A stretch of 37,216 nt of DNA from Butyrivibrio sp. (GTDB taxonomy: Bacteria; Bacillota; Clostridia; Lachnospirales; Lachnospiraceae). This document shows positions 7,717-22,375 of this stretch, one piece after another; the first letter of the stretch is position 1; each line of letters opens with the position of its first letter. Made by a program: the position numbers and the translations under genes. The notes beneath the pieces were generated by a model. That model was not told where the DNA came from. It saw only the letters and a program-made list of their open reading frames with translations, and ran no database searches. The stretch is taken from contig JAGBMP010000118.1 in assembly GCA_017634825.1 (NCBI GenBank), positions 1 to 37,216 of the forward strand. The letters run 5' to 3'.

Positions 7717-7734
7717 CAGGTCACGAGAGCTCTT

Positions 7735-8790
7735 TTACCTGGTTCTGTTTGATGTGGACTGTTTGCGATATGCAGAGGGTGTCATGCCTGTGTGCTTTTT
7801 AAACTGTCTTATATAATGCTCTGTGGTATCGTACCCAACAGCTTCTGCTATGGTCTGCACCGTCATGGTGGAATTGGCAAGAAGATCCTGCGATCTTTCG
7901 ATTCGGACAGTTCGCAGGATTTCTGTGTAATTCATGCCTGTGAGCTCTTTTATCAGCCTTGATGTATATTCGTTGGAATAGTGGAACTTATTTGACAGAT
8001 CCGACAAGGTAACATCTTTGTAGTTTTCCTGAATATACTGGATAAGAGCATAGCGCTGGACATCTACTCTGGAGTCGAACAGGGGCATCTGAACAGATTC
8101 GGAGTACCGTCTTATTATCAGATAGAAGTCGAGGAGTAGGGTGTTTGTTATGGCTTGGTAGTGGTACTCTTCCTTGTTGCGACTCTCTGTTAACATCCAT
8201 ATGAAGGACTCGGAAATGGCCGCGTCCTGGCCGGTCCTGAACATTATATAATCGTTCGCCTTTTTGGCATAAATGTTGTTCAGAAAGAAGGATGAGAGGA
8301 TGTTACGGGTGTTGAGAAAGGAGTAGAACATAGTGTGAAGTGTATCACGGCGTAGCATTATATTTATGGCGATAGTGTCGTCAAATACCGCAAAAGAATG
8401 CCTGATTCCCGGTGGGATCACGCAGAAATCTCCTGTTCTCATCTCAATGGTATTGCCCGATATAGTCTGGGTGCATCTGCCATCGTAAATATATGAGATT
8501 TCAAAAAAGGTATGGCTATGCTCAATATCGGGGCTGTATCTTTCGTGTTTTTGAACAATAATACTGTCATTGTCAGACAGATCAAAAAAGAAATAATCCT
8601 CATAAACATCGGGGATTGTTTCTTTTTTTTCTTTGATCAGAAGGTGCTTACTCAGCACCATTTCCATGTCAAGATTCTTAAGAAATTCTCTAAGCGAATC
8701 CGGGTTCTTACCTGCGAGGTAGTAATCTCTATAAAATGCTTCCACCTCTGTAACATCGTATATATGCTGCTTTAATGCATTAGCGTCCAT
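7735..8790 (-). CDS. AraC-family transcriptional regulator with N-terminal cupin sensor
   Basis: 351 residues. A cupin-like sugar-sensing domain at about 85-140 contains HSHTFFEISYIYDG and GDFCVIPPGIRHSF. The C-terminal 100 residues are a double helix-turn-helix: LSDLSNKFHYSNEYTSRLIKE, then TIAEAVGYDTTEHYIRQFKKH with the AraC signature ending TPSAYRKQ. AAGGAG precedes the ATG. It is divergent from the sugar ABC operon, so by position it is the likely activator of that operon, responding to the imported sugar or a breakdown product. The operon promoter has a good -10 but a poor -35, as expected for an activated promoter. Confidence 0.92.
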   Translation of the reverse strand: MDANALKQHIYDVTEVEAFYRDYYLAGKNPDSLREFLKNLDMEMVLSKHLLIKEKKETIPDVYEDYFFFDLSDNDSIIVQKHERYSPDIEHSHTFFEISYIYDGRCTQTISGNTIEMRTGDFCVIPPGIRHSFAVFDDTIAINIMLRRDTLHTMFYSFLNTRNILSSFFLNNIYAKKANDYIMFRTGQDAAISESFIWMLTESRNKEEYHYQAITNTLLLDFYLIIRRYSESVQMPLFDSRVDVQRYALIQYIQENYKDVTLSDLSNKFHYSNEYTSRLIKELTGMNYTEILRTVRIERSQDLLANSTMTVQTIAEAVGYDTTEHYIRQFKKHTGMTPSAYRKQSTSNRTR

Positions 8791-8997
8791 TTTATCTCCT
8801 TATATTGAGGGCTCCTATTAAATCTACTATATCTGCTCGGCAAGTAGATGTCAAAAAATCAAAGATTTATATAAAAATTATTATATTTAAATCATAAAAC
8901 ATCAATAATATTGAGCGATTTTGTGAATTATATTCAGTGTTTTTTAAACATATAATTGCATCATAAAGAGCGCCGTTACAGAAAGGAATGGGCAGTT
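8791..8997. other. Divergent control region of the AraC gene and the sugar operon
   Basis: A very AT-rich 207-base gap with no convincing coding sequence. It has small inverted repeats, AAATC-AAA-GATTT near 8855-8875 and CAATA-A-TATTG at 8903-8913, that could be regulator sites. AraC proteins usually bind direct repeats, and I find none that is clear. The operon promoter is at its right end. Confidence 0.5.
8928..8956 (+). promoter_or_regulatory. Likely promoter of the sugar ABC/glycosidase operon
   Basis: Perfect TATAAT (8951-8956), 17 bases after a weak TTATAT (8928-8933). Transcription would begin near 8963, leaving a leader of about 35 bases before the ATG at 8998. The weak -35 suits activation by the divergent AraC protein. 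Confidence 0.5.
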
Positions 8998-10500
8998 ATG
9001 AATAAACCAGTTCTTGAAATGAAGAATATCAGCAAACGATTCGGAAGTGTCGTGGCTCTTAACAAGGTTGACCTTGCAGTTTATCCCGGTGAGATCAGAG
9101 GACTGATCGGTGAGAACGGATCAGGAAAATCCACTATTTCCTCAATAGCTGCCGGAATGCAGAAAGCAAATGAAGGCGAGATATCTTTTAAGGGAAACAG
9201 ATGGGAACCGGCCAGTATGATAGATGCACTGAACAAGGGCATTGGAATGGTTGTTCAGGAAAGCGGGACCATTGGAGGAATATCGGTAGCTGAGAACATG
9301 TTTCTTGCTGAGCTTGGGAGCTTTAAAAACAAATTTGGCCTTGTGGACAAAAACAAACTGGAAAGAAAAGCAGATGAGGCTCTTAAAAGCGTTGGGATAA
9401 CAGGAATCAGCGGAAGGGATGCGATGGGAAGGCTGGATTTTCAGGACAGGAAGCTGGTTGAAATAGCCAAAGTCATCATGAAAAACCCGGATATTCTGAT
9501 CATCGATGAAACATCAACTGCGCTGTCCCACGATGGAAGGCAGATCATGTACAGTCTGATCAGGAAAATGAGGGATGACGGAAAGTCGGTGATCTTTATA
9601 TCTCATGATCTGGACGAAATCATGGAAGTCTGCGACACATTGACGGTACTCAGGGATGGAAACATCATAAGGACCTTTGAAAAAGAGGAATTTGATGCAG
9701 ATGCCATCCGCAGCAGCATGATAGGAAGAGAGCTTAAAGGTGATTATTACAGGGCGGATACCGAGTGTACATCTCTTGATGAAGTGGTTCTCAGCGCTCA
9801 AAGCCTGAACTACAAAGATAATTTAAAGGACGTTTCTCTGGAGCTCCACCGCGGAGAGATTGTGGGAGTCGGTGGTCTTGCGAGCAGCGGAATGCACGAT
9901 CTGGGTGAAGCCCTTTTCGGAGCGCTAAAGCTTGATTCGGGACATGTTATCTGCGGTAGTGGAAAAGAGATACTCAGCCCTCACAATGCAATGGGACAAA
10001 AGATCGGATATGTGTCGAAAGACAGAGACCAGAAATCTTTGTGTCTCGATGCCAGTATAAAAGACAACATTGCTATCGCCGGAATGAATATCTTTAAAAA
10101 CAAAATGAACCTTGTTACTTCATTCGGTGAGAAAAAATATGTAAAAAAACAGGTGGATGAACTTAAGATCAAATGTTCAGATATGGATCAGGCAGTAAGT
10201 CAGCTTTCGGGTGGCAATAAGCAGAAGGTTGTCTTTGGTAAATGGATAGGCTGCGGAAGCGAGATACTGATTCTGGATTGCCCCACAAGAGGCGTGGATA
10301 TCGGAGTCAAGCAGGCGATGTACCAGCTCATGGTAAAGCTCAAAAATGAAGGCAAGGCAATACTTATGATAAGCGAGGAGCTGCCGGAGCTGATAGGTAT
10401 GAGTGACAGAATACTCATTATGAAGGACGGAGAGATCACAAGAGAGTTTAAGAGAAGCAGTACCCTCAGCGAGGGAGACATCATAAGCTACATGATCTGA
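8998..10500 (+). CDS. Sugar ABC transporter ATPase, RbsA/MglA type, two NBDs
   Basis: 500 residues; cytoplasmic motor of a monosaccharide- or oligosaccharide-type importer. I chose the ATG at 8998 with GAAAGGA 10 bases upstream rather than the in-frame TTG at 8956. NBD1 has Walker A GENGSGKST (38-46) and Walker B ILIIDE (E171) with His203, but its signature is degenerate (LDFQDRKLVEI, 146-156, instead of LSxGxQ). NBD2 has no real P-loop (VGGLASSGM, about 291-299, usual for this family) but a good LSGGN (403-407). Its Walker B reads LILDCP, with Cys428 where the catalytic Glu is expected. One composite ATP site is thus intact and the other doubly disabled. It is first in the operon, 14 bases before the permease. 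Confidence 0.93.
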   Translation: MNKPVLEMKNISKRFGSVVALNKVDLAVYPGEIRGLIGENGSGKSTISSIAAGMQKANEGEISFKGNRWEPASMIDALNKGIGMVVQESGTIGGISVAENMFLAELGSFKNKFGLVDKNKLERKADEALKSVGITGISGRDAMGRLDFQDRKLVEIAKVIMKNPDILIIDETSTALSHDGRQIMYSLIRKMRDDGKSVIFISHDLDEIMEVCDTLTVLRDGNIIRTFEKEEFDADAIRSSMIGRELKGDYYRADTECTSLDEVVLSAQSLNYKDNLKDVSLELHRGEIVGVGGLASSGMHDLGEALFGALKLDSGHVICGSGKEILSPHNAMGQKIGYVSKDRDQKSLCLDASIKDNIAIAGMNIFKNKMNLVTSFGEKKYVKKQVDELKIKCSDMDQAVSQLSGGNKQKVVFGKWIGCGSEILILDCPTRGVDIGVKQAMYQLMVKLKNEGKAILMISEELPELIGMSDRILIMKDGEITREFKRSSTLSEGDIISYMI

Positions 10501-10514
10501 GGAAGGTAAAAGAG

Positions 10515-11495
10515 ATGACAGATAAAAGGAAAACCAACATAAAACAAAAACTCATATCCTTGCTTCCCATTGCTGCTTTACTGGTTTTGTTTGCAGCATT
10601 TCTGGCGGTGGTAAGCATAAATGGCTACAGGCTGGATATGTACCTGAAAATAGTATTTAATGAGGCTCTTGTTCTTGTGGTGGTTGCTACTGGGGCGATC
10701 TTCATTTATACCCTTGGCACCTTTGATATAAGCCTTGGAGCATCAACACTTTTTGCAGCCACTATGGGAGTTATGACCTATAACAATACTCAGAGCCTTA
10801 TATTGATGATCGTCGCGATATTCGCGGTGGGTATCACAGCTTCACTGCTGAATTCGATTTTGGCCTCGGTTTTTCATATACCTCCCTTCGTGACAACTGT
10901 TGCCATGATGTCGGTTCTTTCAGCTCTCTCGGCACAGATCATCACAAGTTATGGAGGAGCTCTTGGGGGAATAAGTATTCCCAGCGAAGTTGTAAAGCCC
11001 TTTGACAACATAGGTTTTAAGGCAGTGCTTTTAATAGCTTTTTTTGCCATATGCTTCTTTGTATTCCAGTTTACGAAGGCCGGAAGAAGGATGAAATTTG
11101 TGGGCGGAAATCCAATTTGTGCAGAGCTTACAGGAATAAAGGCAAGTAAATATACGATCCTGGCCTTTGTGATGGCGGGAATCGGAATCGGCCTCGGAGC
11201 ATTTTTGACACTTTGCTATACCCCATCGGTTACTACTACAACAGCATCAAGTATAGGAATGAATATCTTTATTGCGATCGTTTTCGGAGGAATGCCAATC
11301 TCAGGAGGTGCAAGAAGTAAGATTTACGCGGCACTGATCGGTGGCTTCTCATATATTTTGCTGAATGACATCCTTGAGATAGGCATAGACAGCAGCGCAG
11401 CATACGGCATTACACAGGTGATCAGTGCAGTCTTTTTCCTGGCTGTTGTTTATGTAACCAGCATGAATTACAGGACAGCACTGTTACCAAGATAA
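10515..11495 (+). CDS. Sugar ABC transporter permease, RbsC-like (first)
   Basis: 326 residues, largely hydrophobic with about eight to ten membrane segments, of the BPD_transp_2 permease family (RbsC, MglC). Family features seen include the GTFDISLGAS segment near residues 68-78 and the IFIAIVFGGMPISGG loop near 250-265, which matches the conserved region around the ATPase contact of these permeases. The N-terminus MTDKRKTNIKQK is positively charged and cytoplasmic. A GGAAGG ribosome site lies before the ATG. With the second permease of equal length downstream it probably forms a heterodimeric channel, an arrangement found in some family members, whereas ribose systems use one permease twice. 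Confidence 0.91.
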   Translation: MTDKRKTNIKQKLISLLPIAALLVLFAAFLAVVSINGYRLDMYLKIVFNEALVLVVVATGAIFIYTLGTFDISLGASTLFAATMGVMTYNNTQSLILMIVAIFAVGITASLLNSILASVFHIPPFVTTVAMMSVLSALSAQIITSYGGALGGISIPSEVVKPFDNIGFKAVLLIAFFAICFFVFQFTKAGRRMKFVGGNPICAELTGIKASKYTILAFVMAGIGIGLGAFLTLCYTPSVTTTTASSIGMNIFIAIVFGGMPISGGARSKIYAALIGGFSYILLNDILEIGIDSSAAYGITQVISAVFFLAVVYVTSMNYRTALLPR

Positions 11496-11509
11496 AGGAG
11501 GAAAATATT

Positions 11510-12709
11510 ATGAACAAAAAACTTACAAAAGTGATCGGACTTATCATGGCCGGGGCTATGACAGTGATGGCAGGATGCGGAAATTCGGCACCTGCTGCAC
11601 AGGGCAGTGCTGATAACGCAGCACCGGCACAGGAAGCTGAAACAACTACTCAGTCTTCCGGTAAAGCCAAGAAAATCGGAGTGCTTGTAGCAGATGTCAG
11701 CGGGGAGGAAGCCCTGGGATTTAGAAATTACTATGAGAAGTATATTCAGGAAAACTATGATGTTACCTTCGATTACACTGATGCGCTGGCAAGTGCTGAA
11801 GACGAGAAGGCCGCTATTGAAAAATTTGCATCAAAGGGATATGACGCAGTTATCTCTTTATCCAGCAGCGACAGAGCGCAGCAGATTGAGACCTGCGAGC
11901 AGTATGGCCTTTACTATGCAATAGCTTCAGGAGTTCTTGATGACGAGCAGTATGAAAAATACAAAGGTTATGAGCACTTCGTTTGCCAGATCGGACCTTC
12001 AAATGCCACTGAATTTGAGGCAGGAAAAGCTATGGGCGAGTATTTTAAAAATCAGGGAGTAAAGAAGGTGGCTCTCTATGGCGCTTTCATTCCCAATCCT
12101 ATGCACGTTTTCAGAGCAGCCGGTATTCTTACGGGACTTGGTTGTACCTACGGCGGAGCAAATGACATGGGAGCGATCGTGGGACAGATTTTCCAGGATC
12201 AGGGAATTGATCTTTCAAAGGTTTCCGGCGATGTTGAACTTGTTGCATACCTCCAGGGATATGGCGATACAACAACAGATGAGCTTGGTGCAGCTATTCA
12301 GAAGGCTCCCGAAGCATTCCTTTCAGTTGGAATGGCAACTACATTCTTTGCACAGACACTTTCACAGGAAAATATACCTTTTGCCGATATTGATTCCTTT
12401 ACTGCCATGAACAGTCAGTCAATGGAGAGTGGAAGTCTTAAATATCTTGCAGGTAAGTATTCATCATCTATCGGACCTGTATTTGCGCTGGTTTCAAATG
12501 CGATTGACGGAAATCTTATCAGAAATGATGAGGGAAATGCTGTATCGCTCAATCAGGGCTATCTGGTAGCAACAGACAAGGCAACCTTCGATGAGTATTT
12601 TGTCAATGACAACGGTGATTCACCCATCTACAACAAAGAGACACTTGATAGCATTATCGGAAGTCAGGTCACCTATCAGGATGTAAAAAGCCTTGTAGAG
12701 AGTAAGTAA
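11510..12709 (+). CDS. Sugar-binding lipoprotein of the ABC importer
   Basis: 399 residues. Signal MNKKLTKVIGLIMAGAMTVMAGC with lipobox MAGC, Cys23 lipidated, followed by a Ser/Ala/Gln/Thr-rich tether to about residue 53. The body begins KKIGVLVADVSGEEALGFRNYY, the first strand of a type I periplasmic-binding fold (Peripla_BP_4 class, as in ribose/galactose-binding proteins). The recurring alternation of beta strands and helices (DAVISLSSSD, VKKVALYG) fits the two-lobed fold. Ligand cannot be read from sequence. It is placed between the two permease genes, with AAAGGAGG before the ATG. It is anchored to the outer face of the membrane and would deliver substrate to the permeases. Confidence 0.92.
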   Translation: MNKKLTKVIGLIMAGAMTVMAGCGNSAPAAQGSADNAAPAQEAETTTQSSGKAKKIGVLVADVSGEEALGFRNYYEKYIQENYDVTFDYTDALASAEDEKAAIEKFASKGYDAVISLSSSDRAQQIETCEQYGLYYAIASGVLDDEQYEKYKGYEHFVCQIGPSNATEFEAGKAMGEYFKNQGVKKVALYGAFIPNPMHVFRAAGILTGLGCTYGGANDMGAIVGQIFQDQGIDLSKVSGDVELVAYLQGYGDTTTDELGAAIQKAPEAFLSVGMATTFFAQTLSQENIPFADIDSFTAMNSQSMESGSLKYLAGKYSSSIGPVFALVSNAIDGNLIRNDEGNAVSLNQGYLVATDKATFDEYFVNDNGDSPIYNKETLDSIIGSQVTYQDVKSLVESK

Positions 12710-12733
12710 TACAGAGTAATAAGGAGATTAGCT

Positions 12734-13714
12734 ATGAGTACCCCGAAGAGAATCGTAAACGCACTGGCCATACCGGTTGTAACCCTTGTGGTTTTGCAGA
12801 CTCTTTGCCTGTTAAATGGACAGAGTGTGATTTCAAATATGAAAAGCTTTGACAATTTCATAGTTTATACAGCTATTGTGATGATCACAACCATGGCTCT
12901 TTCCATAAATCTGAACAGCGGAAGATTTGATTTCTCCCTGGGATCAATGGCCGGTCTGTCATCTATCATAGGGGCAAAAATAACCTATGGGATTCTCTCC
13001 GGGGGAAATGGCTCTGCGCCGGTGATGCTTTGTATATCCCTTGTTGCAGGTGTGATACTTGGACTAATATCGGGTCTTACATATTGCATATTAAGACTGC
13101 CTCCCATCATAGTCTCACTGGGAGTAACGCTGGTGTATGAGGGAATTATGTACACAATAACCGGTGGCAAATATGTTATGAGTGAAGTTCAAAATCCTTC
13201 AATGTCCGCTCTTACAGGAACCTGGGTCTATGCAGCATTGATAATAGCGGCAGTCCTTGCATTTATGATAATTACTTTTGATAAAACGGCCTTTGGATAT
13301 GACTACAACGCACTTAAGTCGGGACAGAAGGTGGCTGTGGCTACAGGTATCAATGAGGTAAAAAACACTCTGATCTGTTATGGGATCAGTGGAGGCCTGA
13401 TGGGTATAGTGGGAACACTTAATGCGGCCAGAAATACGACAATAAATGGAGGACAGCTCAATTTTGGCAGTATAGCCATCATGTTTACAGCATTTCTCCC
13501 TATGTTTATCGCAGGATATATCGGCAGATTCACAAACGAGAAGATTGGCTTTCTCTTGGCGGCTGTTTGCATGTCACTTTTAAATTCTACCTTTGCTGTA
13601 TTCTCAAACTCAGTGAATGCAACGATGCAGTCAATTATAAATGCAGTATTGCTGGTTGTTTTCCTTATTTACCTGAACAACAATGATTTGATAAAGAGAT
13701 TATTGAAAGCATGA
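12734..13714 (+). CDS. Sugar ABC transporter permease, RbsC-like (second)
   Basis: 326 residues, BPD_transp_2 family with about eight to ten hydrophobic segments. NLNSGRFDFSLGSMAGL (about 56-72) corresponds to the GTFDISLG segment of the first permease, and NFGSIAIMFTAFLPMFIAGY (about 246-265) to its conserved cytoplasmic loop. The two permeases are clearly related but diverged, consistent with an ancient duplication and heterodimer. AAGGAG lies before the ATG. The stop overlaps the start of the next gene (ATGA), so translation is probably coupled. Confidence 0.91.
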   Translation: MSTPKRIVNALAIPVVTLVVLQTLCLLNGQSVISNMKSFDNFIVYTAIVMITTMALSINLNSGRFDFSLGSMAGLSSIIGAKITYGILSGGNGSAPVMLCISLVAGVILGLISGLTYCILRLPPIIVSLGVTLVYEGIMYTITGGKYVMSEVQNPSMSALTGTWVYAALIIAAVLAFMIITFDKTAFGYDYNALKSGQKVAVATGINEVKNTLICYGISGGLMGIVGTLNAARNTTINGGQLNFGSIAIMFTAFLPMFIAGYIGRFTNEKIGFLLAAVCMSLLNSTFAVFSNSVNATMQSIINAVLLVVFLIYLNNNDLIKRLLKA

Positions 13715-15234
13715 AAGACTTAAGATTATTGAAAAAAGCAACGACTCTTTTCCCAAGGATAAATGAAAAAGAGATTGCTGTAGCCGAAACAGTAAGTATT
13801 ACAAGGGACAGCAAGGGAATAAAGAAAAAAAGTCTCCGGGATTTCAGGACTATGTCACTAAAAAAGGGTGATGAGGTCATCCTTGACTTTGGCGGACATC
13901 TGGTTGGATATCTTTCTCTTGCTTTTAAGAACATAGGAGCTCATGCAGATGCTCCGGTGCTTTTAAGAGTACGCTTTGCCGAAAGAGAAGTAGAGCTGTT
14001 TGAGGATGCATCAGAATACAGTGGCTGGGTAAGCGCATCATGGATACAGGAAGAGCTGGTAAAGGTGGATGTAGTCCCCGGAAGGCTGGACTTTGACAGA
14101 CGATATTCATTCAGATTTGTAAGGATTGAGGTTATGGATATCAGTTCAAGATTTGACCTTCAGATTTCCGAAGCTTGGGCCAAGGCTGTCACTTCTGCCA
14201 GAGATACGGATCTTTTACCCTATGAGGCGGCAGATCCCTTGGACAGAGAGATGGACAAGGTGGCTGTAAAAACCCTCAAAGATTGCATGCAGACAGTGTT
14301 TGAGGATGGACCTAAAAGAGACAGAAGGCTGTGGATAGGAGATCTTAGGATACAGGCTCTGGCCAATTATGAAACCTACAGAATGAATGATATGGTCAAA
14401 TCCTGTCTTTACCTGTTCGGTGCGCTTACTCAGGAGAACGGAAGAGTCGGAGCCTGCGTATTTTTGGAGCCTGAGCCTGAAGTAGACGACACCTGTATGT
14501 TTGACTATTCTCTGTTTTTTGTGGTCATTCTCAGGGATTATTACAGAAAGACAGGTGACCAGGAGGCGTTGGAGGATCTGTGGCAGGTATGCCGCAGACA
14601 GATCAGTCTTGCCAGAGAAGGCCTTGACCAACACTATGTAGTAAGGGACCTTGACGTTCTTGGCTGGTGCTTTGTGGACTGGAATCTGGAGCTGAATAAA
14701 CAGGCAAGTGCGCAGGGGATATTCCTGTACGCGCTGGAGGCAGCAATTGAGCTTGCCGAGCAGGTCGGAGATGTGCTCTCAGAGGAAGAGTATGCTGATC
14801 TTTACAACAAAGTAAAGGATGCAGCCAATACTTTTTTATATGATGAAAAAATGGGCATGTACGTAAGCGGGAAAGACAGACAGATCTCCTTTGCATCTCA
14901 GATATGGATGATACTTGGAAATGCCGTTGAAGGTAGCGCTGCACTCAGGCTTTTGGAAAGACTAAATGGCTGCGACGGTGCTGTTAAAATGGTTACTCCT
15001 TATATGTATCACAACTATATAGATGCGCTTATTAAGCTTGGCAGGAAAGAAGACGCTCACAATCTCATGAGACAGTACTGGGGCGGAATGATCCAAAACG
15101 GTGCAGATACCTTCTGGGAGCTGTATAATCCCGAAAACCCGGACGAGTCACCTTACGGAGGGACCATTGTAAACAGTTATTGTCATGCCTGGAGCTGTGG
15201 CCCGGCGTATTTTCTCAGGAAATACTTTGCTTAA
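13711..15234 (+). CDS. GH78-like (six-hairpin) glycoside hydrolase, intracellular
   Basis: 507 residues with no signal peptide, so it should act on imported sugars. A beta-sandwich-like N-terminal part (about 1-165) precedes an alpha/alpha-barrel domain like that of alpha-L-rhamnosidases. The family motif is visible as EDGPKRDRRLWIGD (198-211), NGADTFWELYNPE with Glu470, and NSYCHAWSCGP near the end. Characterised GH78 enzymes have the general-acid Glu in the RDERLGW version of the first motif; here that position is Arg205 and a Gly is missing, while the C-terminal Glu seems kept. At 507 residues it is shorter than typical rhamnosidases. Substrate may not be rhamnose, or the chemistry may differ. 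The start overlaps the upstream permease stop; GH3 follows in 24 bases. Confidence 0.8.
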   Translation: MKDLRLLKKATTLFPRINEKEIAVAETVSITRDSKGIKKKSLRDFRTMSLKKGDEVILDFGGHLVGYLSLAFKNIGAHADAPVLLRVRFAEREVELFEDASEYSGWVSASWIQEELVKVDVVPGRLDFDRRYSFRFVRIEVMDISSRFDLQISEAWAKAVTSARDTDLLPYEAADPLDREMDKVAVKTLKDCMQTVFEDGPKRDRRLWIGDLRIQALANYETYRMNDMVKSCLYLFGALTQENGRVGACVFLEPEPEVDDTCMFDYSLFFVVILRDYYRKTGDQEALEDLWQVCRRQISLAREGLDQHYVVRDLDVLGWCFVDWNLELNKQASAQGIFLYALEAAIELAEQVGDVLSEEEYADLYNKVKDAANTFLYDEKMGMYVSGKDRQISFASQIWMILGNAVEGSAALRLLERLNGCDGAVKMVTPYMYHNYIDALIKLGRKEDAHNLMRQYWGGMIQNGADTFWELYNPENPDESPYGGTIVNSYCHAWSCGPAYFLRKYFA

Positions 15235-15258
15235 TTCTTTGGAAGAAGAGAGTTTGAT

Positions 15259-17028
15259 ATGACATTTGATAATTATGAAATCGATTATACCGGGAATCCG
15301 TTTTTTCTTGACGAGAGTGCTATAAATTGGGTAAAAGAGACCTTTGAGGACATGAGCCTTGAGGAAAAATGCGGACAGATTTTTTGCCCCATGGGATTTA
15401 GCAGTGAAGATGAAGTCCTTCGCGGAATCGTCAGTGGAATTGGTGTTGGCGGGATGATGTACAGAAGTGGGAGAGCAAAAGAGATTCAGGATACTCACAG
15501 AAAAATACAATCAATGGCCAAAATTCCGCTTTTATTAGCCGCTAATACGGAGAGTGGTGGAGATGGACTGGCTGTAGAGGGGACATCCTTTGGCAAGCCC
15601 ATGGCAGTTGCAGCAACCGCGGATCCTGAAAACGGCTACAGGATGGGTTATGTTGCATGCAGGGAAGGGGCGGCACTGGGACTAAACTGGTCTTTTGCTC
15701 CTATCGTGGATATCAACAGAGACTTTCATAATCCGATAACAAACGTCAGGACCTTTGGCGATGACCCGGAGAAGATAGTTTCCTTCGCTTCACACTATAT
15801 GGATGGTGCAGATGAAAATAATGTTGCCGTGTCAATAAAACATTTCCCCGGAGACGGAATAGATGAAAGAGACCAGCATATCCTCACCAGTGTCAATTCT
15901 CTGTCTGTAAAAGAGTGGGATGACAGCTTCGGATACATCTATAAAAGCCTTATAGATAAGGGAGCAAAGACTGTAATGGTGGGACATATTGCCCAGCCGG
16001 CTTATGTAAAAGAGATTAACAATAATGCTGACAGAAGAAGCATGTTGATGCCGGCATCTCTTTCTAAGGAGCTTCTTGGAGGTCTTCTCAGAAAACGCCT
16101 TGGCTTTAATGGTCTTATAACCACAGATGCTACTCCCATGGTAGGATTTACCAGCGCAATGCCCAGAAATATTGCCATACCGACTGCCATAGAAAACGGC
16201 TGCGACATGATTTTGTTCAATAAGAGCCTTGAAGAAGATTACGGTTTCATGCTTGAGGGTATTGGCAGTGGTTTGTTGTCCGTAAAAAGACTTGATGAGG
16301 CAGTGCTGAGAATTCTTGCAACAAAGGCATCCCTGGGACTTCATGAGAAACAAAAAAATGGAAGTCTTGTCCCTATGGAAGAAGATTTATCAGTTGTTGG
16401 CTGCAGCAAACACAGAATGTGGGCAAAAGAGGTGGCTGATAAGGCTGTCACTCTTGTGAGGGACGAGAAAGCTCTTTTGCCGTTAAGTCCGAAGAAATAC
16501 CGGAGGATATACCTGAATGTGATCGACAAGGAAATGGACCCGGAGAGCGCATTTGTAAAGATGTGGAAGGATAAGCTGGAAGCAGAAGGGTTTGAAGTTA
16601 CGGTAAGGGACAGAAGGGTTAAAATTGTCCCGGCTGATTTTATGGATCCGGCATCACTGCCTGATGAGAAGAAGGCTCTTTTACATGAGATGTACAGAAG
16701 TGTTGCTGAGATGAAGGAATCCTTTGATCTGTATCTATATGTCTGCAATATGGAAAATGCTTCAAATAACACTACTTTGCGACTCAACTGGAACGTAGTG
16801 TTTGGGCTTGGAGATGATGCGCCCTGGCATGCATCAGAAATACCTATGATGATGATATCGACTTCGTATCCATATCATCTGTTTGATGCTCCCATGATCG
16901 GGACTTATATTAATTCCTACAGCGGAGGTGCGGATTTTGTCGATGCAACTGTAGAGAAAATAATGGGCAGATCTGAGTTTATGGGAGTTAGTCCCATTGA
17001 TCCCCTGTGCGGAAAGGATTACATCTGA
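15259..17028 (+). CDS. GH3 glycosidase or phosphorylase, NagZ-like active site
   Basis: 589 residues, cytoplasmic. The N-terminal GH3 barrel has NVRTFGDDP (162-170), KHFPGDG (194-200), the Asp205-x-His207 dyad (ERDQH) and the likely nucleophile Asp290 in LITTDATPM. A GH3 C-terminal alpha/beta domain begins around residue 390 (KAVTLVRDEKALLPL). NagZ-type GH3 enzymes use exactly such an Asp-His pair as acid/base, while ordinary beta-glucosidases use a Glu from the second domain. Some Asp-His GH3 enzymes are phosphorylases. Here KHFPGDG replaces the usual KHFPGHG. The beta-phosphoglucomutase gene begins 1 base after the stop, which supports a phosphorolytic role (inference). Annotation as beta-N-acetylhexosaminidase or beta-glucosidase would be equally usual. 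Confidence 0.86.
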   Translation: MTFDNYEIDYTGNPFFLDESAINWVKETFEDMSLEEKCGQIFCPMGFSSEDEVLRGIVSGIGVGGMMYRSGRAKEIQDTHRKIQSMAKIPLLLAANTESGGDGLAVEGTSFGKPMAVAATADPENGYRMGYVACREGAALGLNWSFAPIVDINRDFHNPITNVRTFGDDPEKIVSFASHYMDGADENNVAVSIKHFPGDGIDERDQHILTSVNSLSVKEWDDSFGYIYKSLIDKGAKTVMVGHIAQPAYVKEINNNADRRSMLMPASLSKELLGGLLRKRLGFNGLITTDATPMVGFTSAMPRNIAIPTAIENGCDMILFNKSLEEDYGFMLEGIGSGLLSVKRLDEAVLRILATKASLGLHEKQKNGSLVPMEEDLSVVGCSKHRMWAKEVADKAVTLVRDEKALLPLSPKKYRRIYLNVIDKEMDPESAFVKMWKDKLEAEGFEVTVRDRRVKIVPADFMDPASLPDEKKALLHEMYRSVAEMKESFDLYLYVCNMENASNNTTLRLNWNVVFGLGDDAPWHASEIPMMMISTSYPYHLFDAPMIGTYINSYSGGADFVDATVEKIMGRSEFMGVSPIDPLCGKDYI

Positions 17029-17029
17029 T

Positions 17030-17668
17030 ATGAAATATAAGGCCATAATTTTTGATCTGGACGGAGTTATCTGTTTTACCGATGAATATCACTATCTTGC
17101 ATGGAAAGAGCTGGCAGATGAGCTGGATATTCCCTTTGACAGGACTATCAATGAAAGGCTCAGGGGCGTCAGCAGAATGGATTCTCTTGAGATCATACTG
17201 GAGAAGTACACAGGACCTGCTCTTTCAGATGAGGAGAAGGAAAGACTTGCCACCAAAAAGAACGACATCTACAGAAAGAGTCTTGAAAATATGTCTGAAA
17301 AAGACCTCTCAGACGAGGTCAGAGATACTTTAAATACTCTTAGGGATATGGGACTTAAGCTTGCCATCGGATCATCAAGCAAAAATACCAAGTTCATATT
17401 AAAACAGATCGGGCTGGAAGGTTTCTTTGACGCCATAAGTGATGGCACCAATATCACAAGATCCAAGCCCGATCCGGAAGTGTTCTTAAAAGCTGCGCAG
17501 TTCCTGACAGAAGAGCCAAAGGACTGCCTTGTTATCGAGGATGCAGAAGCCGGCATAGATGCTGCTGTTGCAGGAGGCTTTGACGGCGCAGGTATCGGAA
17601 GTGCAGCAAACTATGATAAGGCGACCTATCACCTTGAGTCTTTTAAGGACATCTTAAAGTTTGTTTAA
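17030..17668 (+). CDS. pgmB: Beta-phosphoglucomutase
   Basis: 212 residues from the ATG at 17030, one base after the GH3 stop; an earlier in-frame ATG at 16997 would overlap GH3 and adds residues that do not fit the family. A HAD-superfamily enzyme converting beta-glucose-1-phosphate to glucose-6-phosphate. FDLDGVICFTDEYHYLAWK (8-26) contains nucleophile Asp9 and acid/base Asp11 and the His/Trp-containing cap-domain start typical of PgmB. RLRGVSRMDSL matches the cap substrate loop, SSSKN the motif II Ser, SKPDPEVF the Lys and IEDAEAG the last Asp motif. PgmB usually accompanies a phosphorylase that makes beta-glucose-1-phosphate; no GH65 phosphorylase is present here, which points to GH3. Its stop overlaps the convergent potD stop by 3 bases. 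Confidence 0.92.
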   Translation: MKYKAIIFDLDGVICFTDEYHYLAWKELADELDIPFDRTINERLRGVSRMDSLEIILEKYTGPALSDEEKERLATKKNDIYRKSLENMSEKDLSDEVRDTLNTLRDMGLKLAIGSSSKNTKFILKQIGLEGFFDAISDGTNITRSKPDPEVFLKAAQFLTEEPKDCLVIEDAEAGIDAAVAGGFDGAGIGSAANYDKATYHLESFKDILKFV

Positions 17669-19161
17669 TTATAAAGCTTCTCTTTGGCTGCTTTATGCCT
17701 GAGAATAAGGAAAACTGCAGCGCAGATTGCCAAAAGACCTGCAATCCATACCCATACAGGCACATTGAGGATATTAAAGCACCTTACCCGGATCCACATG
17801 CGGTTTATGACTTCGCTCTGTGCCTGATCAAAGTAGATCATGATGGAAGCCCGGTCGATTACATCTGAGGAGGGATACTGGGCGCCTAATTGGCGATCCA
17901 GCTGTTCCGTGGGAACTGTCAGTATGTAATCCTCATCGTCAGGATCTCCAGAGAAGAAATATCCTACCGGATATTCGGTTACATCCTCGGTATCATCCTC
18001 AGCTCCGTAGGTCCACTCAAGATATTCAAATACCCGTCCATCGTCTCCTCCTGAGATGACAGAGGTATATCCGATATAATACATGTCGCGGATAGCGTTG
18101 TCGGGGCGTGAAACGAAATTGATAAACGCCTCGGCAGCCTGCTGTTTGGCAGGATCCTGGGATATTCCCTTCTTGAGCATTACCCATCCGTCAAAGTAAA
18201 TATTGGTGCTTTCTCTGGGAGCGGCGAAGTTTAAGTAGTAGTCGTCTTCCTCAGCCTGATCCATGGTATATACTGCATCTCCGGACCACTGGTAGTTTGC
18301 AACAACCTTGCCGGTGATCATATCGGCCTTACCTGAGTCAGTCTCGAAGGAATACAGATTGTCTTTTACCTGTTGAAGGTATTCCTGAACATTGTTCACC
18401 GTTTCCAGGGAGACGTCGTTCATTTCATCCTGCAAGGCCATGGCATAGTCAGGCCTGTTCTTAAATTCATCCGAAGTCAGAAGATCTGATTTAAGGGCGC
18501 CCACAGCGGCAAAATATGCATCTCTGACATTGTCCTTTATGGTTACCTGGCGCTTGTAATCTGCATTTTCAAGCAACTTCCAGGTGGATGCTTCCTCTTT
18601 GCTCACCACATCCGGATTGTACACGAAACCGGTTATACCCCACATATATCCTGCTGCGCAGCGATCCCAGGTAACACCGTTAATATCGTGGGTCTCAAAG
18701 ATGTTTCTGATGTAGGGAGAAACGCCTTTGATGTAGTAGTTGGTATCTATTGTAGGGTCAAAAAACTCATCTGAGAGGGGCTGAACCATATCATCTGCCA
18801 TGAGCTTCATGATCATGTACTCCGAAGGGCACACAAGGTCATAAACATCGCCTATGGTGAGCATGTTGTAGAGATCCTCGTTGGTACCGAAGGTGGAGTA
18901 TTCTACTTTGACTCTCTTTCCGTAGGTCTCGTAGTACCAGTCTTCGAAGTCTTTTACCATGGGGTTCTGACCGAAAACATCGCCGCTCTCAAGGTCTATA
19001 ACCTCGTCATCATCCCAGTCACCCTGGTCTATATATTCTTCCCAGTTGCAAACCCGCAGAACTACAGGTTTATCAGCCTCTGCAGCAGCGGATGCGGGGA
19101 TGAAGTTTGTCATAATAACGCTTGTTATCAAAAACGCAGCCGTAACAATTCTTGCTTTCAT
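17665..19161 (-). CDS. potD: Polyamine-type ABC substrate-binding protein with C-terminal membrane anchor
   Basis: 498 residues, of the PotD/PotF family by VVLRVCNWEEYID near the mature N-terminus, VPSEYMIMKL-like segment (CPSEYMIMKL), YMWGITGFVYNP and the ANYQWSGDAVYTM region. It has a classical signal peptide (about 1-26, FIPASA-AAE) with no lipobox Cys. Instead the C-terminus carries VWVWIAGLLAICAAVFLILRHKA (about 468-490), a membrane segment with a Lys/Arg-rich cytoplasmic end. Most Gram-positive binding proteins are lipid-anchored, so this transmembrane anchor is unusual. It also has acidic inserts not expected in a 350-residue PotD. It is last in the operon and overlaps potC by the ATGA-type junction. 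Spermidine/putrescine is the family substrate; actual ligand is unproven. Confidence 0.9.
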   Translation of the reverse strand: MKARIVTAAFLITSVIMTNFIPASAAAEADKPVVLRVCNWEEYIDQGDWDDDEVIDLESGDVFGQNPMVKDFEDWYYETYGKRVKVEYSTFGTNEDLYNMLTIGDVYDLVCPSEYMIMKLMADDMVQPLSDEFFDPTIDTNYYIKGVSPYIRNIFETHDINGVTWDRCAAGYMWGITGFVYNPDVVSKEEASTWKLLENADYKRQVTIKDNVRDAYFAAVGALKSDLLTSDEFKNRPDYAMALQDEMNDVSLETVNNVQEYLQQVKDNLYSFETDSGKADMITGKVVANYQWSGDAVYTMDQAEEDDYYLNFAAPRESTNIYFDGWVMLKKGISQDPAKQQAAEAFINFVSRPDNAIRDMYYIGYTSVISGGDDGRVFEYLEWTYGAEDDTEDVTEYPVGYFFSGDPDDEDYILTVPTEQLDRQLGAQYPSSDVIDRASIMIYFDQAQSEVINRMWIRVRCFNILNVPVWVWIAGLLAICAAVFLILRHKAAKEKLYN

Positions 19162-19964
19162 CAGGCTCTCTCCTCTTTAATTTCCCGTCGCTCGAATTTC
19201 AGATTCCTTACGGCAACGATGATGATGACTATCAGAAAGATCAGTGTGGACAGAGCCCACAGAGCAGTCTTGATGTGGGTCTGGGAACCCTTTGTGGCGT
19301 TGACAACATAAGTACTGATAGTGTCAAAGGTTGCCGGCTTGGTATAGGTGGCGATGAAATAGTCATCCAGCGAAAGAGTGATAGCCAGCGAAAATCCTGA
19401 GATTATACCTGAAAGGATCTGGGGAATAACCACTTTTCTCAGGGCCTGGAAGGGCCTTGCGCCCAGGTCCAGAGCTGCCTCATAGAGGCTTGAATCCATC
19501 TGCTTAAGCTTGGGGATAACCGAGAGATACACAAAGGGTGCACTTAAGGTTACATGTCCAATGAGCAGCGGAAGGAAGCTGTCTTTATTGATGCCCAGAA
19601 CAACTACAAGGAGGATACACAGTGAAAATCCTGTAACTACATCAGCATTTATGACCGGAATCTGGTTCACGGTGTCCATGGCGGCGGTAGTGCGCCTATG
19701 GGAATAGAAAGCTCCAATGGCGCCCAGTGTGCCGAGAATGGTTGCCAGCAGCGCCGAAGAGAGGGCTAAGAGGATCGTTCCGAGAATCATCTCCTGCAGC
19801 TCGGGGGTAGTGAACAGCGTCACGTAGTTTTTCAGGGTAAAAGAGCGTATGGCTCCGATCTGGGTTGAGTCAGTGAAGCTGTACAGTGCAAGCACAAGGA
19901 TAGGTACGTATAAAAACAGTATGACCAGAATCGGTATTCCTGCACGGGTAATCTTTCTTATCAT
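19161..19964 (-). CDS. potC: Polyamine ABC transporter permease PotC
   Basis: 267 residues with about six membrane segments and the binding-protein-dependent permease (BPD_transp_1) domain. The EAA motif, which docks to the ATPase, is visible as YEAALDLGARPFQALRKVVIP (20 of these residues being the conserved loop). SFTLKNYVTLF in the first periplasmic region is typical of PotC. The start overlaps the end of potB by 4 bases and the stop overlaps the start of potD, so the four genes are translationally linked. Confidence 0.94.
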   Translation of the reverse strand: MIRKITRAGIPILVILFLYVPILVLALYSFTDSTQIGAIRSFTLKNYVTLFTTPELQEMILGTILLALSSALLATILGTLGAIGAFYSHRRTTAAMDTVNQIPVINADVVTGFSLCILLVVVLGINKDSFLPLLIGHVTLSAPFVYLSVIPKLKQMDSSLYEAALDLGARPFQALRKVVIPQILSGIISGFSLAITLSLDDYFIATYTKPATFDTISTYVVNATKGSQTHIKTALWALSTLIFLIVIIIVAVRNLKFERREIKEERA

Positions 19965-20749
19965 AACAGAGCACCTCCTGTCTTAACGGTTTCTCCCCTG
20001 TCATCATCGTTGATAAGATTGAAAAGACAAATGATGCCAAGCAGGATCAGTGCGATCATTGAGCCGCCGTGCCAGTTATATGCAGCAAAATAGCTGCCGA
20101 TGAGACTTCCCATGATATAGGTACTGTTATATAACATATCTAACACTACATAGTTGGTCATGGCCGGCAGAAGTACCATGGATACGCCGCTTATGATACC
20201 CGGAAGAGAAAGGGGCAATGTTATGCGCAGGAATGCATGTCTGTCGTTGGCGCCCAGGTCTTTTGCAGCTTCTATAAGTGATCCGTCCATCTTGGCAAGG
20301 GTGTTGTAGATGGGCAGGATCATGAAGGGCAGAAAATCGTAGGTCATGCCAATCACCGAATTAAGGAACGGATAGTATGCAAGATTCCCTTCTATCAGGT
20401 CAAGGATCTCTTTCAGCGCAGTAATACGCAGGGAAAAATTGATCCACATGGGCATGATGAAGATCATGATAACAACTGAATTCTTCTTAAGTCTCCCGGT
20501 AGTCAGAATATAGGCTGTGGGATAGGCCAAAAGAAGGCATACAGCCGTGGTCGTAAGGGCAAGGACAAAGCTGTAAAAAAGCGTTCCAACGGTATTGGGA
20601 TCTGTAAAAAAGCCTGTAAGATTCAGGAGCGTGAACTGTCCCTGTCCATTTGTAAATGCATAGTAGAACAGCACCAAGAGCGGTGCAACTACGAATAGCA
20701 GCAGGAATACGGCATATGGGATGCCTAGGGTTTTTCTGGAAAATCTCAT
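19961..20749 (-). CDS. potB: Polyamine ABC transporter permease PotB
   Basis: 262 residues, six membrane segments, BPD_transp_1 fold. The cytoplasmic EAA loop is EAAKDLGANDRHAFLRITLP. MRITALKEIL-like and NSVIGMTYDFLPFMILPIYN segments are characteristic of the PotB half of these transporters. AAGGAGGAG lies before the ATG, and the gene starts 10 bases after potA. It ends inside the start of potC. PotB and PotC form the membrane channel driven by PotA. Confidence 0.94.
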   Translation of the reverse strand: MRFSRKTLGIPYAVFLLLFVVAPLLVLFYYAFTNGQGQFTLLNLTGFFTDPNTVGTLFYSFVLALTTTAVCLLLAYPTAYILTTGRLKKNSVVIMIFIMPMWINFSLRITALKEILDLIEGNLAYYPFLNSVIGMTYDFLPFMILPIYNTLAKMDGSLIEAAKDLGANDRHAFLRITLPLSLPGIISGVSMVLLPAMTNYVVLDMLYNSTYIMGSLIGSYFAAYNWHGGSMIALILLGIICLFNLINDDDRGETVKTGGALL

Positions 20750-20759
20750 ATGCTCCTCC

Positions 20760-22208
20760 TTATTTCTTAACTGTAAATTTCATCTTATCAAGGGGCAGGA
20801 TAAGGCCGACCCTGTCATCCATGTTCCAGAGATACTCATCGTCAACGATGAAATCCTGCCCGAAATCAGTGTTGATGACGTAGCTGTAGTGGTCGCCCTT
20901 GTAGATGAGGTTGCTGATAAAGCCCTCAACCAGTACTTGTTCATCCTCAGTATTATCTGTCATGCGGATGTCGTCCGGCTCTATGGCTGCGTCAATATGT
21001 ATCTTGTCGGGATCTATAACTTCGCCGTGCTCGTCCAAAAGCTCGTGGTTTTCGTTGCGGCGACTGCCCTTAATGAGCTGTGTGAGGCTGACGTCGAGCT
21101 CTTTATTGTTGAACTCAAGGCGATGATTTTTGTTCATATCCACATGGAAGAAGTTGGTGTGGTTCTCTGCAAGCATGATGTGGATACCGTCAGGTTCTAC
21201 TTTAAGTCCTACTATGCTCCCCACTTCTGCGGATTTTGTGTTCTGAATGACTACTTCGTAGCGGCCGGACTGAACTGTGATCTCGTAGTGCATACCTTTA
21301 AATATGACGGATATGACCTTTCCGCGGATCTGTCCGTCCTCAGGCGCAACAAGTTCGATATCCTCGGGACGCACAACCGCAGTGATCTGGGTGCCCTGGG
21401 GCACGTCATCAACGCACTTAAACAGTCCACCTGCAAATCTGGCCTGCATGCTGTCTGTCATAATGCCGTTAAAGATATTACTCTCACCGATAAAGTCTGC
21501 AACGAAGGCGTTCTTGGGCTCGTTGTAGATATCTTCGGGAGTTCCGATCTGCTGGATCTTGCCTTCCGCCATGACTACGATCTTATCTGACATGGTAAGA
21601 GCTTCTTCCTGGTCGTGGGTAACGTAAATAAATGTTATGCCCAGCTCATCGTGCATAGCCTTAAGCTCTATCTGCATCTCTTTTCTCATCTTGAGATCAA
21701 GAGCGCCAAGGGGCTCGTCAAGAAGTAGGATTTCAGGCTCGTTGACAAGAGCTCTTGCGATGCCTACACGCTGCTGCTGACCGCCGGAAAGGGTGGAAAC
21801 ACTTCTTTTCTCAAAGCCCTCAAGGTCAACCAGTTCCAGTACTTTTTTAACTTTTTTCTTGATCTCATCCGCCGGAAGCTTTTTAAGCTTTAGACCAAAG
21901 GCAATATTGTCGAATATATTCATATGGGGAAACAGAGCATAGCGCTGGAACACCGTGTTGATCGGCCTCTCATAGGGCGGAAGCTGTGAGATGTCTTTGC
22001 CGTTAAGAAGGATATCTCCGGAAGTGGGCATATCAAAGCCTGCTATCATTCGAAGAGTCGTGGTCTTGCCACAGCCCGAAGGGCCCAGGAAGGTGACAAA
22101 CTCTCCGCGCTTTACCTCCAGATTAAAGTCCTCAACAGCCTTGAAGCCATCTTCAAAGATCCTGTTGATGTGTTTGAGTTCGATGATATTATCGTTGGTG
22201 TTCCCCAT
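20760..22208 (-). CDS. potA: Polyamine ABC transporter ATPase PotA with a duplicated C-terminal TOBE region
   Basis: 482 residues from the ATG at 22208, chosen for AAGGAG upstream; an in-frame extension to 22268 lacks a ribosome site. The ATPase has Walker [10 protein letters not shown] (42-50), LSGGQQQRV (140-148), Walker B LLLDEP (161-166) and His198. The first TOBE domain (about 279-346) contains VRPEDIELV and [14 protein letters not shown] linker follows, then a second copy (about 409-478) with IEPDDIRM and [13 protein letters not shown], clearly homologous to the first. Typical PotA is around 350-380 residues, so the extra 100 are unusual. TOBE domains in such ATPases bind regulatory ligands or stabilise the dimer. 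First gene of a leftward potABCD operon. Confidence 0.93.
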
Positions 22209-22375
22209 TTTGGTAAGCTCCTTATATAATCGCAATTCATTGTTTATTATTCTATCACGTGGACGCATTACTGTGGGAAAAAGTATATGATTTCTTAATC
22301 TTTCTTTTAGTTACGTTTTAAGTAGGGAGCCTATTATTGCTTTCAGATGAGCAAACAGTTTAGGAGGAATGATCC
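22209..22375. other. Divergent region between potA and the esterase gene
   Basis: 167 bases, AT-rich, non-coding. A TATTAT at 22332-22337 may be the -10 of the esterase gene but no -35 at the right distance is convincing; potential leftward elements for potA (TAATAA-type) are equally weak. No riboswitch or strong palindrome is seen. Confidence 0.4.

What the first reader, a model, noticed from the sequence alone, without database searches (positions are those of the whole stretch)
15259..17668. GH3 enzyme with Asp-His dyad abutting beta-phosphoglucomutase: possible retaining phosphorolysis pathway
Seen: GH3 with KHFPGDG, Asp205-x-His207 and Asp290, then pgmB 1 base later. Known: NagZ-type GH3 enzymes use Asp-His instead of the usual acid Glu, and some act as phosphorylases; GH3 is retaining, so phosphorolysis of a beta-glycoside should give a beta-sugar-1-phosphate. 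PgmB acts on beta-glucose-1-phosphate and normally sits with GH65-type inverting phosphorylases, none of which is here. Inference: the pair is a novel energy-saving route (GH3 phosphorylase plus PgmB) for an imported oligosaccharide.
Basis: partly seen in the sequence, partly recalled or inferred. Interest (0 to 1): 0.72.

Follow-up and report, generated by a model that had tools for sequence, protein, structure and literature searches.

The report
GH3 phosphorylase–PgmB sugar-salvage cassette
A gut-type bacterium carries a compact gene cassette that most likely imports plant-type rhamnosyl-glucosides, trims off rhamnose and splits the remaining glucoside with phosphate instead of water, so that the glucose enters metabolism already phosphorylated; the splitting enzyme is of a known but rare kind, and its recurring partnership with the sugar-phosphate mutase looks new.

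Summary
In detail: GH3 (15259-17028; KHFPGDG, D205-Q206-H207, D290) is followed after one base by pgmB (17030-17668). The best solved relative is BglP (5VQD), a reported retaining beta-glucoside phosphorylase, so the enzyme class is not new. What looks new, as far as I could search, is its tie to PgmB. pgmB lies near this GH3, same strand, in 56 of 80 relatives in varying gene order. Among 259 family genomes without GH65, 14 of 14 with a close GH3 have pgmB, against 4 of 245 others. In a class sample of 274, the only 2 genomes with pgmB but no GH65 have it beside such a GH3, though 2 genomes with a high-scoring GH3 lack pgmB. A distant GH3 clade is not linked (0 of 17). One GH3-PgmB and one GH78-PgmB fusion were seen. 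The cassette also holds a sugar ABC importer, an AraC regulator and a GH78 closest to a rutin-cleaving rhamnosidase. Best reading: phosphorolytic use of rhamnosyl-beta-glucosides (GH78, GH3, PgmB). No activity was measured. The Asp-His dyad alone does not prove phosphorolysis; the case rests on BglP kinship and gene linkage.

The parts
7734..17698 (.). whole cassette: a block about 97% identical to Butyrivibrio sp. YAB3001 and AE3009 (the pgmB part 87-91%); the long alignment ends near both edges
   Evidence: HSP 7734-17698 to L077, 7719-17698 to L078; about 2.5 kb upstream and 5-9 kb downstream in those loci not aligned in place
7735..8790 (-). AraC-family regulator with cupin domain, divergent from the operon
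   Evidence: PF12833, PF02311, PF07883
8998..10500 (+). sugar ABC ATPase of the ribose/xylose/arabinose/allose type (ORF opens at TTG 8956; ATG chosen by eye)
   Evidence: PF00005, two stretches; NCBIfam simple-sugar ATPases, those shown all below their cut-offs
10515..11495 (+). ABC permease
   Evidence: PF02653
11510..12709 (+). presumed lipoprotein substrate-binding protein (no family hit; position and N-terminus by eye)
   Evidence: no Pfam or NCBIfam hit at E 0.001; homologues in the matching place in several relatives
12734..13714 (+). second ABC permease
   Evidence: PF02653
13711..15234 (+). two-domain GH78 alpha-L-rhamnosidase, KoRha type; presumed acid D204 and presumed base E470
   Evidence: PF21104, PF17389; 4xhc E 2.5e-138; residues placed with PMC4690510
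15259..17028 (+). GH3, BglP type: presumed retaining beta-glucoside phosphorylase
   Evidence: PF00933; 5vqd BglP E 8.8e-140
15463..15465 (+). codon of R69, in the pgmB-linked relatives and BglP
   Evidence: 68 of 68 linked rows; 0 of 17 distant unlinked rows; 15 of 15 near unlinked rows
15739..15744 (+). codons of T161-N162 (PITN motif)
15871..15879 (+). codons of D205-Q206-H207 (presumed acid/base dyad; Gln206 as in BglP)
   Evidence: invariant; BglP alignment
16126..16128 (+). codon of D290, presumed nucleophile
   Evidence: invariant; aligned with BglP
17030..17668 (+). pgmB, beta-phosphoglucomutase
   Evidence: TIGR01990 over cut-off; 3nas, 1lvh

Best explanation
The cassette feeds on imported rhamnosyl-beta-glucosides. 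The ABC importer brings the glycoside in. Cytoplasmic GH78 removes the terminal L-rhamnose. GH3 (BglP type) forms a glucosyl-enzyme on D290 and transfers glucose to phosphate, with the His207/Asp205 dyad as acid/base, giving beta-glucose-1-phosphate with retained configuration. PgmB turns this into glucose-6-phosphate, saving the ATP of a kinase step. Shown here: the genes, their family placement, the conserved linkage of GH3 with pgmB, and the frequent company of GH78. Inferred: the activities, the order (rhamnose must leave first if it sits on O6 of glucose, because PgmB needs a free 6-OH), the aglycone and the cytoplasmic location (no signal peptide seen by eye in GH78, GH3 or PgmB).
For: BglP is the best solved relative by a wide margin (469.9 bits against 170.5 for the next; 45% identity). 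pgmB on the same strand in 56 of 80 relatives, downstream or upstream, GH78 before or after, and in 12 of 39 loci of a family sample that included distant paralogues. In 299 family genomes, 28 of 28 with GH3 of at least 465 bits have pgmB; among those without GH65 it is 14 of 14 against 4 of 245; of those 4, two have a partial window-type GH3 beside pgmB and one has a GH3-PgmB fusion with another kind of GH3. In a class sample of 274, the only 2 genomes with pgmB and no GH65 have pgmB beside this GH3. Distant GH3 clade: 0 of 17 linked. Fusions GH3-PgmB and GH78-PgmB, one genome each. In L079 the cassette is kept at about 97% but carries a different pgmB. No GH65 in 80 + 39 relative loci (tblastn, one query). 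KoRha, the closest solved GH78, gave products consistent with cutting rutin to quercetin-3-glucoside (PMC4690510 passages). Plasmid loci: Carnobacterium GH3 and pgmB overlap; Melissococcus GH3, rhamnosidase, pgmB in a row; 5 of 6 plasmid GH3s with R69/T161/N162 have a pgmB over the TIGR01990 cut-off nearby, 0 of 6 without.
Against: No activity was measured. 24 of 80 relatives show no pgmB in the locus; 10 of these have short flanks; of the 13 genomes behind the other 14 loci, 2 have no pgmB match at all. In the class sample 2 of 5 genomes with GH3 of at least 465 bits lack pgmB, though their GH3s have N69/S162. At that threshold the class test is weak (1 of 3 vs 1 of 224, p 0.026). 14 of 75 family pgmB genes have neither GH65 nor any window-type GH3 in reach. 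BglP itself branches beside, not inside, the window's clade, and the deep order is open. PgmB would also fit other hexose-1-phosphates with a free 6-OH. No GH78 was found in 9 of 56 linked loci, and GH78 is also in 8 of 14 unlinked ones, so it marks the clade rather than the pgmB link (p 0.06). G367 is linked but has His in place of Gln206; Enterococcus innesii has the residues but no pgmB nearby. The 465-bit cut was chosen after seeing the family data.
Confidence: 0.78

Rival explanations
1. The GH3 is a plain beta-glucosidase or beta-N-acetylglucosaminidase that hydrolyses its substrate; pgmB is an operon passenger or serves another phosphorylase.
For: NagZ-like Asp-His GH3 enzymes such as RmNag3 and the Herbaspirillum enzyme show little phosphate effect or no phosphorylase activity (PMC6987092 passages). 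The genome has a GH65 elsewhere. Some relatives and plasmid GH3s lack a nearby pgmB.
Against: The GH65 has its own pgmB. pgmB occurs beside this GH3 in genomes without GH65. The best solved relative is a phosphorylase, not a NagZ hydrolase. A natural GH3-PgmB fusion exists, if of another GH3 branch.
Confidence: 0.12
2. The pair is a phosphorylase route but for another sugar, such as GlcNAc, galactose or mannose, or for beta-gluco-oligosaccharides, and GH78 acts on an unrelated glycoside.
For: The review lists both beta-GlcNAc-1-phosphate and beta-Glc-1-phosphate as BglP donors and cello-oligosaccharides as substrates (PMC8950772). No GH78 found in 9 of 56 linked loci. The fused GH3 has Ser, and the linked GH3 of G367 has His, in place of Gln206.
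Against: Gln206 is kept in 68 of 68 linked rows and BglP, though also in 26 of 32 unlinked rows. GH78 is in 47 of 56 linked loci, and in Melissococcus it lies between GH3 and pgmB.
Confidence: 0.25

Closest known systems
BglP / BglX, GH3 retaining beta-glucoside phosphorylase (PDB 5VQD, 5VQE; GenBank AUG44408.1)
   Same: GH3, D-Q-H and nucleophile Asp aligned; R69, T161, N162 present; 573-residue chain
   Different: 45% identity; BglP came from a mine-tailings library by activity screen (PMC8950772); the review passages I read mention no mutase partner; the window enzyme sits with GH78, an ABC importer and pgmB
GH65 inverting alpha-glucoside phosphorylase + PgmB (maltose, trehalose, kojibiose routes; recalled)
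   Same: phosphorylase makes beta-glucose-1-phosphate for PgmB; neighbouring genes: 35 of 75 pgmB genes in 299 family genomes lie within 10 kb of GH65
   Different: GH65 inverts an alpha bond; here a beta bond would be retained; no GH65 found in 119 relative loci
NagZ-type GH3 beta-N-acetylglucosaminidases, including Nag3 of Cellulomonas fimi
   Same: Asp-x-His dyad
   Different: best NagZ-type solved relative scores 170.5 bits against 469.9 for BglP; window has DQH and more sequence C-terminal to the GH3 domain; some members show no phosphorylase activity
KoRha, two-domain GH78 alpha-L-rhamnosidase of Klebsiella oxytoca (4XHC)
   Same: strong match to the KoRha chain (E 2.5e-138), both catalytic carboxylates kept
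   Different: here in an operon with a presumed phosphorylase and PgmB; substrate untested

Membership tests
GH3 beta-glucoside phosphorylase (BglP type) | GH3 catalytic domain with Asp nucleophile and Asp-His acid/base dyad | tested here: met
   PF00933; D205, H207, D290 invariant and aligned with BglP
GH3 beta-glucoside phosphorylase (BglP type) | active-site Gln that sets glucose over GlcNAc (role recalled from Macdonald 2018, paper not held; that it is this Gln is my inference) | tested here: met
   Q206 aligned with a BglP Gln; 68 of 68 linked rows
GH3 beta-glucoside phosphorylase (BglP type) | one clade with BglP to the exclusion of unlinked paralogues | tested here: inconclusive
   R69 and T161 shared with BglP and absent from the 17 unlinked clade-B rows, but the tree leaves the order of clade A, BglP and clade B open
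GH3 beta-glucoside phosphorylase (BglP type) | phosphorolysis outruns hydrolysis, beta-sugar-1-phosphate product | not testable with these tools
   needs enzyme assay
NagZ beta-N-acetylglucosaminidase | D-S-H motif and single-domain about 340 aa (recalled) | tested here: not met
   D-Q-H, 589 aa; below the cut-off of NCBIfam PRK05337 (98.0 vs 207 bits)
beta-phosphoglucomutase | equivalog model over cut-off and catalytic residues of the L. lactis enzyme (residue list recalled) | tested here: met
   TIGR01990 229.3 vs 189.4 bits; the FDLDGV, EYH, GVSR, SSSKN, SKP and ED motifs keep the key residues against 1lvh (read by eye)
GH78 alpha-L-rhamnosidase (KoRha type) | PF21104 + PF17389 and the two catalytic carboxylates | tested here: met
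   Asp222 and Glu486 of KoRha match D204 and E470 (20-residue offset of the PDB chain worked out by hand)
GH65-PgmB pathway | GH65 phosphorylase in the locus | tested here: not met
   the genome's only PF03632 match is on another contig; 0 of 119 relative loci by tblastn with one GH65 query

The most novel reading that the evidence does not exclude
A widespread, horizontally moving phosphorolytic route for plant rhamnosyl-beta-glucosides exists in Clostridia and Lactobacillales: a retaining GH3 phosphorylase is a second natural supplier of PgmB besides GH65, has fused with PgmB at least once, and the residues R69 and T161-N162 separate these phosphorylases from hydrolytic or otherwise different GH3 paralogues.
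Probability: 0.55. Interest if true: 0.72.

Novelty: new variant of a known kind. Interest (0 to 1): 0.6.

Why it matters
Whether GH3 enzymes with an Asp-His dyad are phosphorylases in the living cell is disputed. The conserved PgmB partnership would give one clade a physiological product, beta-glucose-1-phosphate, and names residues and paralogues with which to test it. It also suggests an energy-saving way for gut and rumen bacteria to use plant glycosides such as rutinosides, and a source of retaining phosphorylases for glycoside synthesis.

Tried and rejected
Rejected: pgmB as a leftover of a GH65 system (GH65 in 0 of 119 relative loci; pgmB beside this GH3 in genomes without GH65). Rejected: adjacency as a local accident. 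Rejected: the Asp-His dyad as sufficient proof (clade B keeps D-x-H and is not linked).

Errors and corrections: one search reported GH78 in every locus because one of its queries (an ORF of L146 taken without a check) is itself a GH3 by its best NCBIfam matches; one search repeats the count without it, and only one search is used for GH78. One search put 18 pgmB genes under 'neither'; searches show 3 beside a partial window-type GH3 at a contig end (G034, G246, G275) and 1 fused to another GH3 (G161). The 800-aa open frame at pgmB in G577 is not a fusion. The 465-bit threshold was set on the family data and did not carry over cleanly to the class data. In one search I lowered the pgmB score limit to 100 bits (140 elsewhere); 1 of the 5 would pass 140, but all 5 pass the TIGR01990 cut-off. 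Searches scored at most 4 GH3 candidates per genome, so copies can be missed. The rate used for chance (1.5 pgmB per 3.5 Mb) is an assumption. The Pfam tally shows 25 of 33 families, so it cannot by itself exclude GH65. The residue counts use 119 rows with near-duplicates (103 after thinning for the tree); four short rows (L074, L075, L076, L117) were dropped before that. The loci overlap (L085 and L038 appear to be the same contig), so 119 loci are not 119 independent places.

Not possible: a structure model (tool off). The papers of Macdonald 2015 and 2018 and Franceus 2021 (ACS Catal., 10.1021/acscatal.1c00761, seen only as a citation) are not held; Franceus 2021 may already discuss gene neighbourhoods.
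Full report
What is there. The window is contig C90 of an incomplete genome (2.43 Mb, 166 contigs, 64.5% complete); the closest named relatives of the GH3 are in Butyrivibrio. The operon on the + strand reads ABC ATPase, permease, presumed binding protein, permease, GH78, GH3, pgmB, with a divergent AraC regulator. GH78 overlaps the permease end by 4 bases, GH3 starts 24 bases after GH78, and pgmB starts one base after GH3. The block 7734-17698 is about 97% identical to Butyrivibrio YAB3001 (L077) and, from 7719, to AE3009 (L078); within it the pgmB part is 87-91% identical. The long alignment ends near both edges; the loci hold only about 2.5 kb upstream of it. In L077 a stretch alike to window 32.2-33.4 kb (82-83%) follows the block in the other direction. 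So the unit sits in different surroundings; that it moves between strains is inference.

What the GH3 is. Its best solved relative is BglP/BglX, 5VQD (469.9 bits, E 8.8e-140); the next, YbbD/NagZ of Bacillus, scores 170.5 bits. BglP is a retaining beta-glucoside phosphorylase by the review PMC8950772 (passages read). D205, Q206, H207 and D290 align with BglP. The review also says that an Asp-His dyad lets phosphate in, but PMC6987092 (passages read) reports Asp-His members with little phosphate effect or no phosphorylase activity, so the dyad is not enough.

What the partner is. The pgmB product passes the TIGR01990 equivalog cut-off (229.3 vs 189.4 bits) and keeps the motifs of the Lactococcus enzyme (by eye; the residue list is recalled).

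Linkage in named genomes. pgmB (tblastn at least 140 bits) lies in 56 of 80, in all 56 on the same strand, at match-to-match distances of 5 to 6158 bases, downstream or upstream; GH78 lies before or after GH3. With at least 8 kb on both sides it is 39 of 52. Of the 24 loci without pgmB, 10 have under 6 kb on one side. For the other 14, the 13 genomes behind them were searched: 11 have a pgmB elsewhere, 2 (G571, G578) have no match. In the 39 loci of a first family sample, which included distant paralogues and some very short contigs, 12 are linked; its one near unlinked row lies in G007, which has a pgmB beside a GH65.

Linkage in a sample of family genomes. In 299 genomes there are 75 pgmB genes in 51 genomes, 40 genomes with GH65 and 51 with a GH3 hit at E up to 1e-100. 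Of the 75 pgmB genes, 34 lie within 10 kb of GH65 only, 22 within 10 kb of such a GH3 only, 1 near both and 18 near neither; of the 18, 3 lie beside a partial window-type GH3 at a contig end and 1 is fused to another GH3, leaving 14. Of these 14, one (G147) lies beside GH78 and one contig is 3.4 kb long. Of 23 pgmB genes near GH3, 22 share its strand. Genomes with GH3 of at least 465 bits: 28 of 28 have pgmB somewhere. Genomes without GH65: 14 of 14 with that GH3 have pgmB, 4 of 245 without it (Fisher p 6e-20, relatedness not corrected). GH3 loci of at least 465 bits: 20 of 34 have pgmB within 10 kb; below: 2 of 45.

Check in a wider sample. In 274 class genomes pgmB occurs in 46 and GH65 in 47; only G308 and G367 have pgmB without GH65, and both have it beside a window-type GH3 (2.5 kb and 18 bases). 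The bit threshold does less well: of 5 genomes with at least 465 bits (own included) 3 have pgmB, 2 (G413, G500) do not; without GH65 it is 1 of 3 against 1 of 224 (p 0.026); with any GH3 hit at E up to 1e-90, 2 of 6 against 0 of 221 (p 0.0006).

Which GH3s are linked. A tree of 103 rows (quick method) has a clade of 24 rows with 0 linked, 17 unlinked and 7 unknown (SH-aLRT 99), and a clade of 72 rows with the window: 50 linked, 12 unlinked, 10 unknown (98); BglP groups with two linked rows (98); the deep order is open and some branches are long. R69 and N162 are in 68 of 68 linked rows and in BglP; R69 and T161 are in 0 of 17 rows of the distant unlinked clade, N162 in 5 of 17; the 15 near unlinked rows carry all three. 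So the residues mark the clade, not adjacency as such. They also set apart G413 and G500 (N69, S162). G367 is an exception: linked, with R69 and T161 but G162 and His at 206.

Test on new material. Of 36 plasmid records with this GH3 I looked at 12 of the 15 listed. R69/T161/N162 is present in 6, of which 5 have a pgmB in the fetched stretch (125-191 bits; here the limit was 100 instead of 140), and all 5 pass the TIGR01990 cut-off; absent in 6, of which 0 have pgmB (p 0.015). Two of the five are one species. Without the Melissococcus and Agrobacterium leguminum rows it is 4 of 5 against 0 of 5 (p 0.048). Flanks were 7 kb in four and 8 kb in eight; the Lactiplantibacillus stretch has only 3.8 kb on one side. 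In Carnobacterium GH3 and pgmB overlap; in Melissococcus GH3, rhamnosidase and pgmB follow each other; the counter-example is Enterococcus innesii, with the residues but GH1, PTS and GH2 neighbours.

Fusions and exchange. In G161 one reading frame of 763 aa holds a GH3 domain (19-336) and a full-length PgmB match (about 553-757); this GH3 is of another branch, with D-S-H and 25% identity to the window, and the other 2 genomes of its genus lack it, so it stands on one assembly. In G077 GH78 and PgmB share one open frame (704 aa read) directly beside the GH3. In Butyrivibrio MC2021 (L079) the cassette is kept at about 97% but the pgmB is another one (59% protein identity). Replacement of the partner by another of the same kind argues that the partnership matters.

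Substrate. GH78 (tblastn with four GH78 queries) is found in 47 of 56 linked, 8 of 14 unlinked and 5 of 10 undecided loci of the named genomes, and in 7 of 12, 1 of 18 and 1 of 10 rows of the family set, where the unlinked ones are nearly all the distant clade. It thus goes with the clade; within the clade its tie to pgmB is not significant (p 0.06). The window's GH78 is closest to KoRha (E 2.5e-138), whose products from rutin on TLC fit rhamnose and quercetin-3-glucoside (PMC4690510, passages read). The importer is of the simple-sugar type. In 27 linked loci Pfam finds 29 permeases of its kind, 19 GH78, 4 GH43, 2 GH2 and 1 GH1 among 97 neighbour ORFs, from the first 25 of 33 families. A rhamnosyl-beta-glucoside (rutinose, rutinosides or the like) fits best; this step is inference.

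Literature. Ten searches of the held library listed no paper that I recognised as describing a GH3 phosphorylase working with PgmB; I judged by listings and opened passages of six papers only. The main papers on GH3 phosphorylases are not held, above all Franceus 2021, so this is weak evidence of novelty.

Verdict. The pair is real and conserved. I put the GH3-phosphorylase-to-PgmB route at 0.78, and the rhamnosyl-glucoside substrate at about 0.55. The enzyme class is known; the coupled pathway, the fusions and the residue signature are what looks new as far as I could see.

Noticed in passing
7734-17698: Whole AraC-ABC-GH78-GH3-pgmB block is about 97% identical in two other Butyrivibrio strains with flanks that do not align in place: a horizontally moving or rearranged unit.
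   Followed up: partly
L187:9691-11979 (G161:C39): One frame of 763 aa joins a NagZ-like GH3 (D-S-H) to a PgmB, beside a glucuronate isomerase gene.
   Followed up: partly
L041:6450-8561 (G077:C15): GH78 and PgmB in one open frame (704 aa read) directly beside a window-type GH3.
   Followed up: partly
L048, L051-L072 and G000:C19:1850-3529: Paralogous GH3 clade, many with KHFPGNGxDxRDAH or EExDQH motifs, not seen near pgmB and lacking R69 in the 17 rows with usable flanks; function unknown.
   Followed up: no
L175, L177 (G245:C146, G214:C111): pgmB genes at 47-48% identity to the window's, one beside a B12-dependent methyltransferase-like gene and one beside a URO-D gene, with no window-type GH3 found there.
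   Followed up: no
G577:C15 (L200): Actinotalea carries a second window-type GH3 with pgmB and the same type of importer: the cassette reaches Actinomycetota.
   Followed up: partly
17665-22268: Convergent operon of an ABC importer (ATPase, two permeases, binding protein), by eye like a polyamine importer; its end overlaps the pgmB stop by 4 bases.
   Followed up: no
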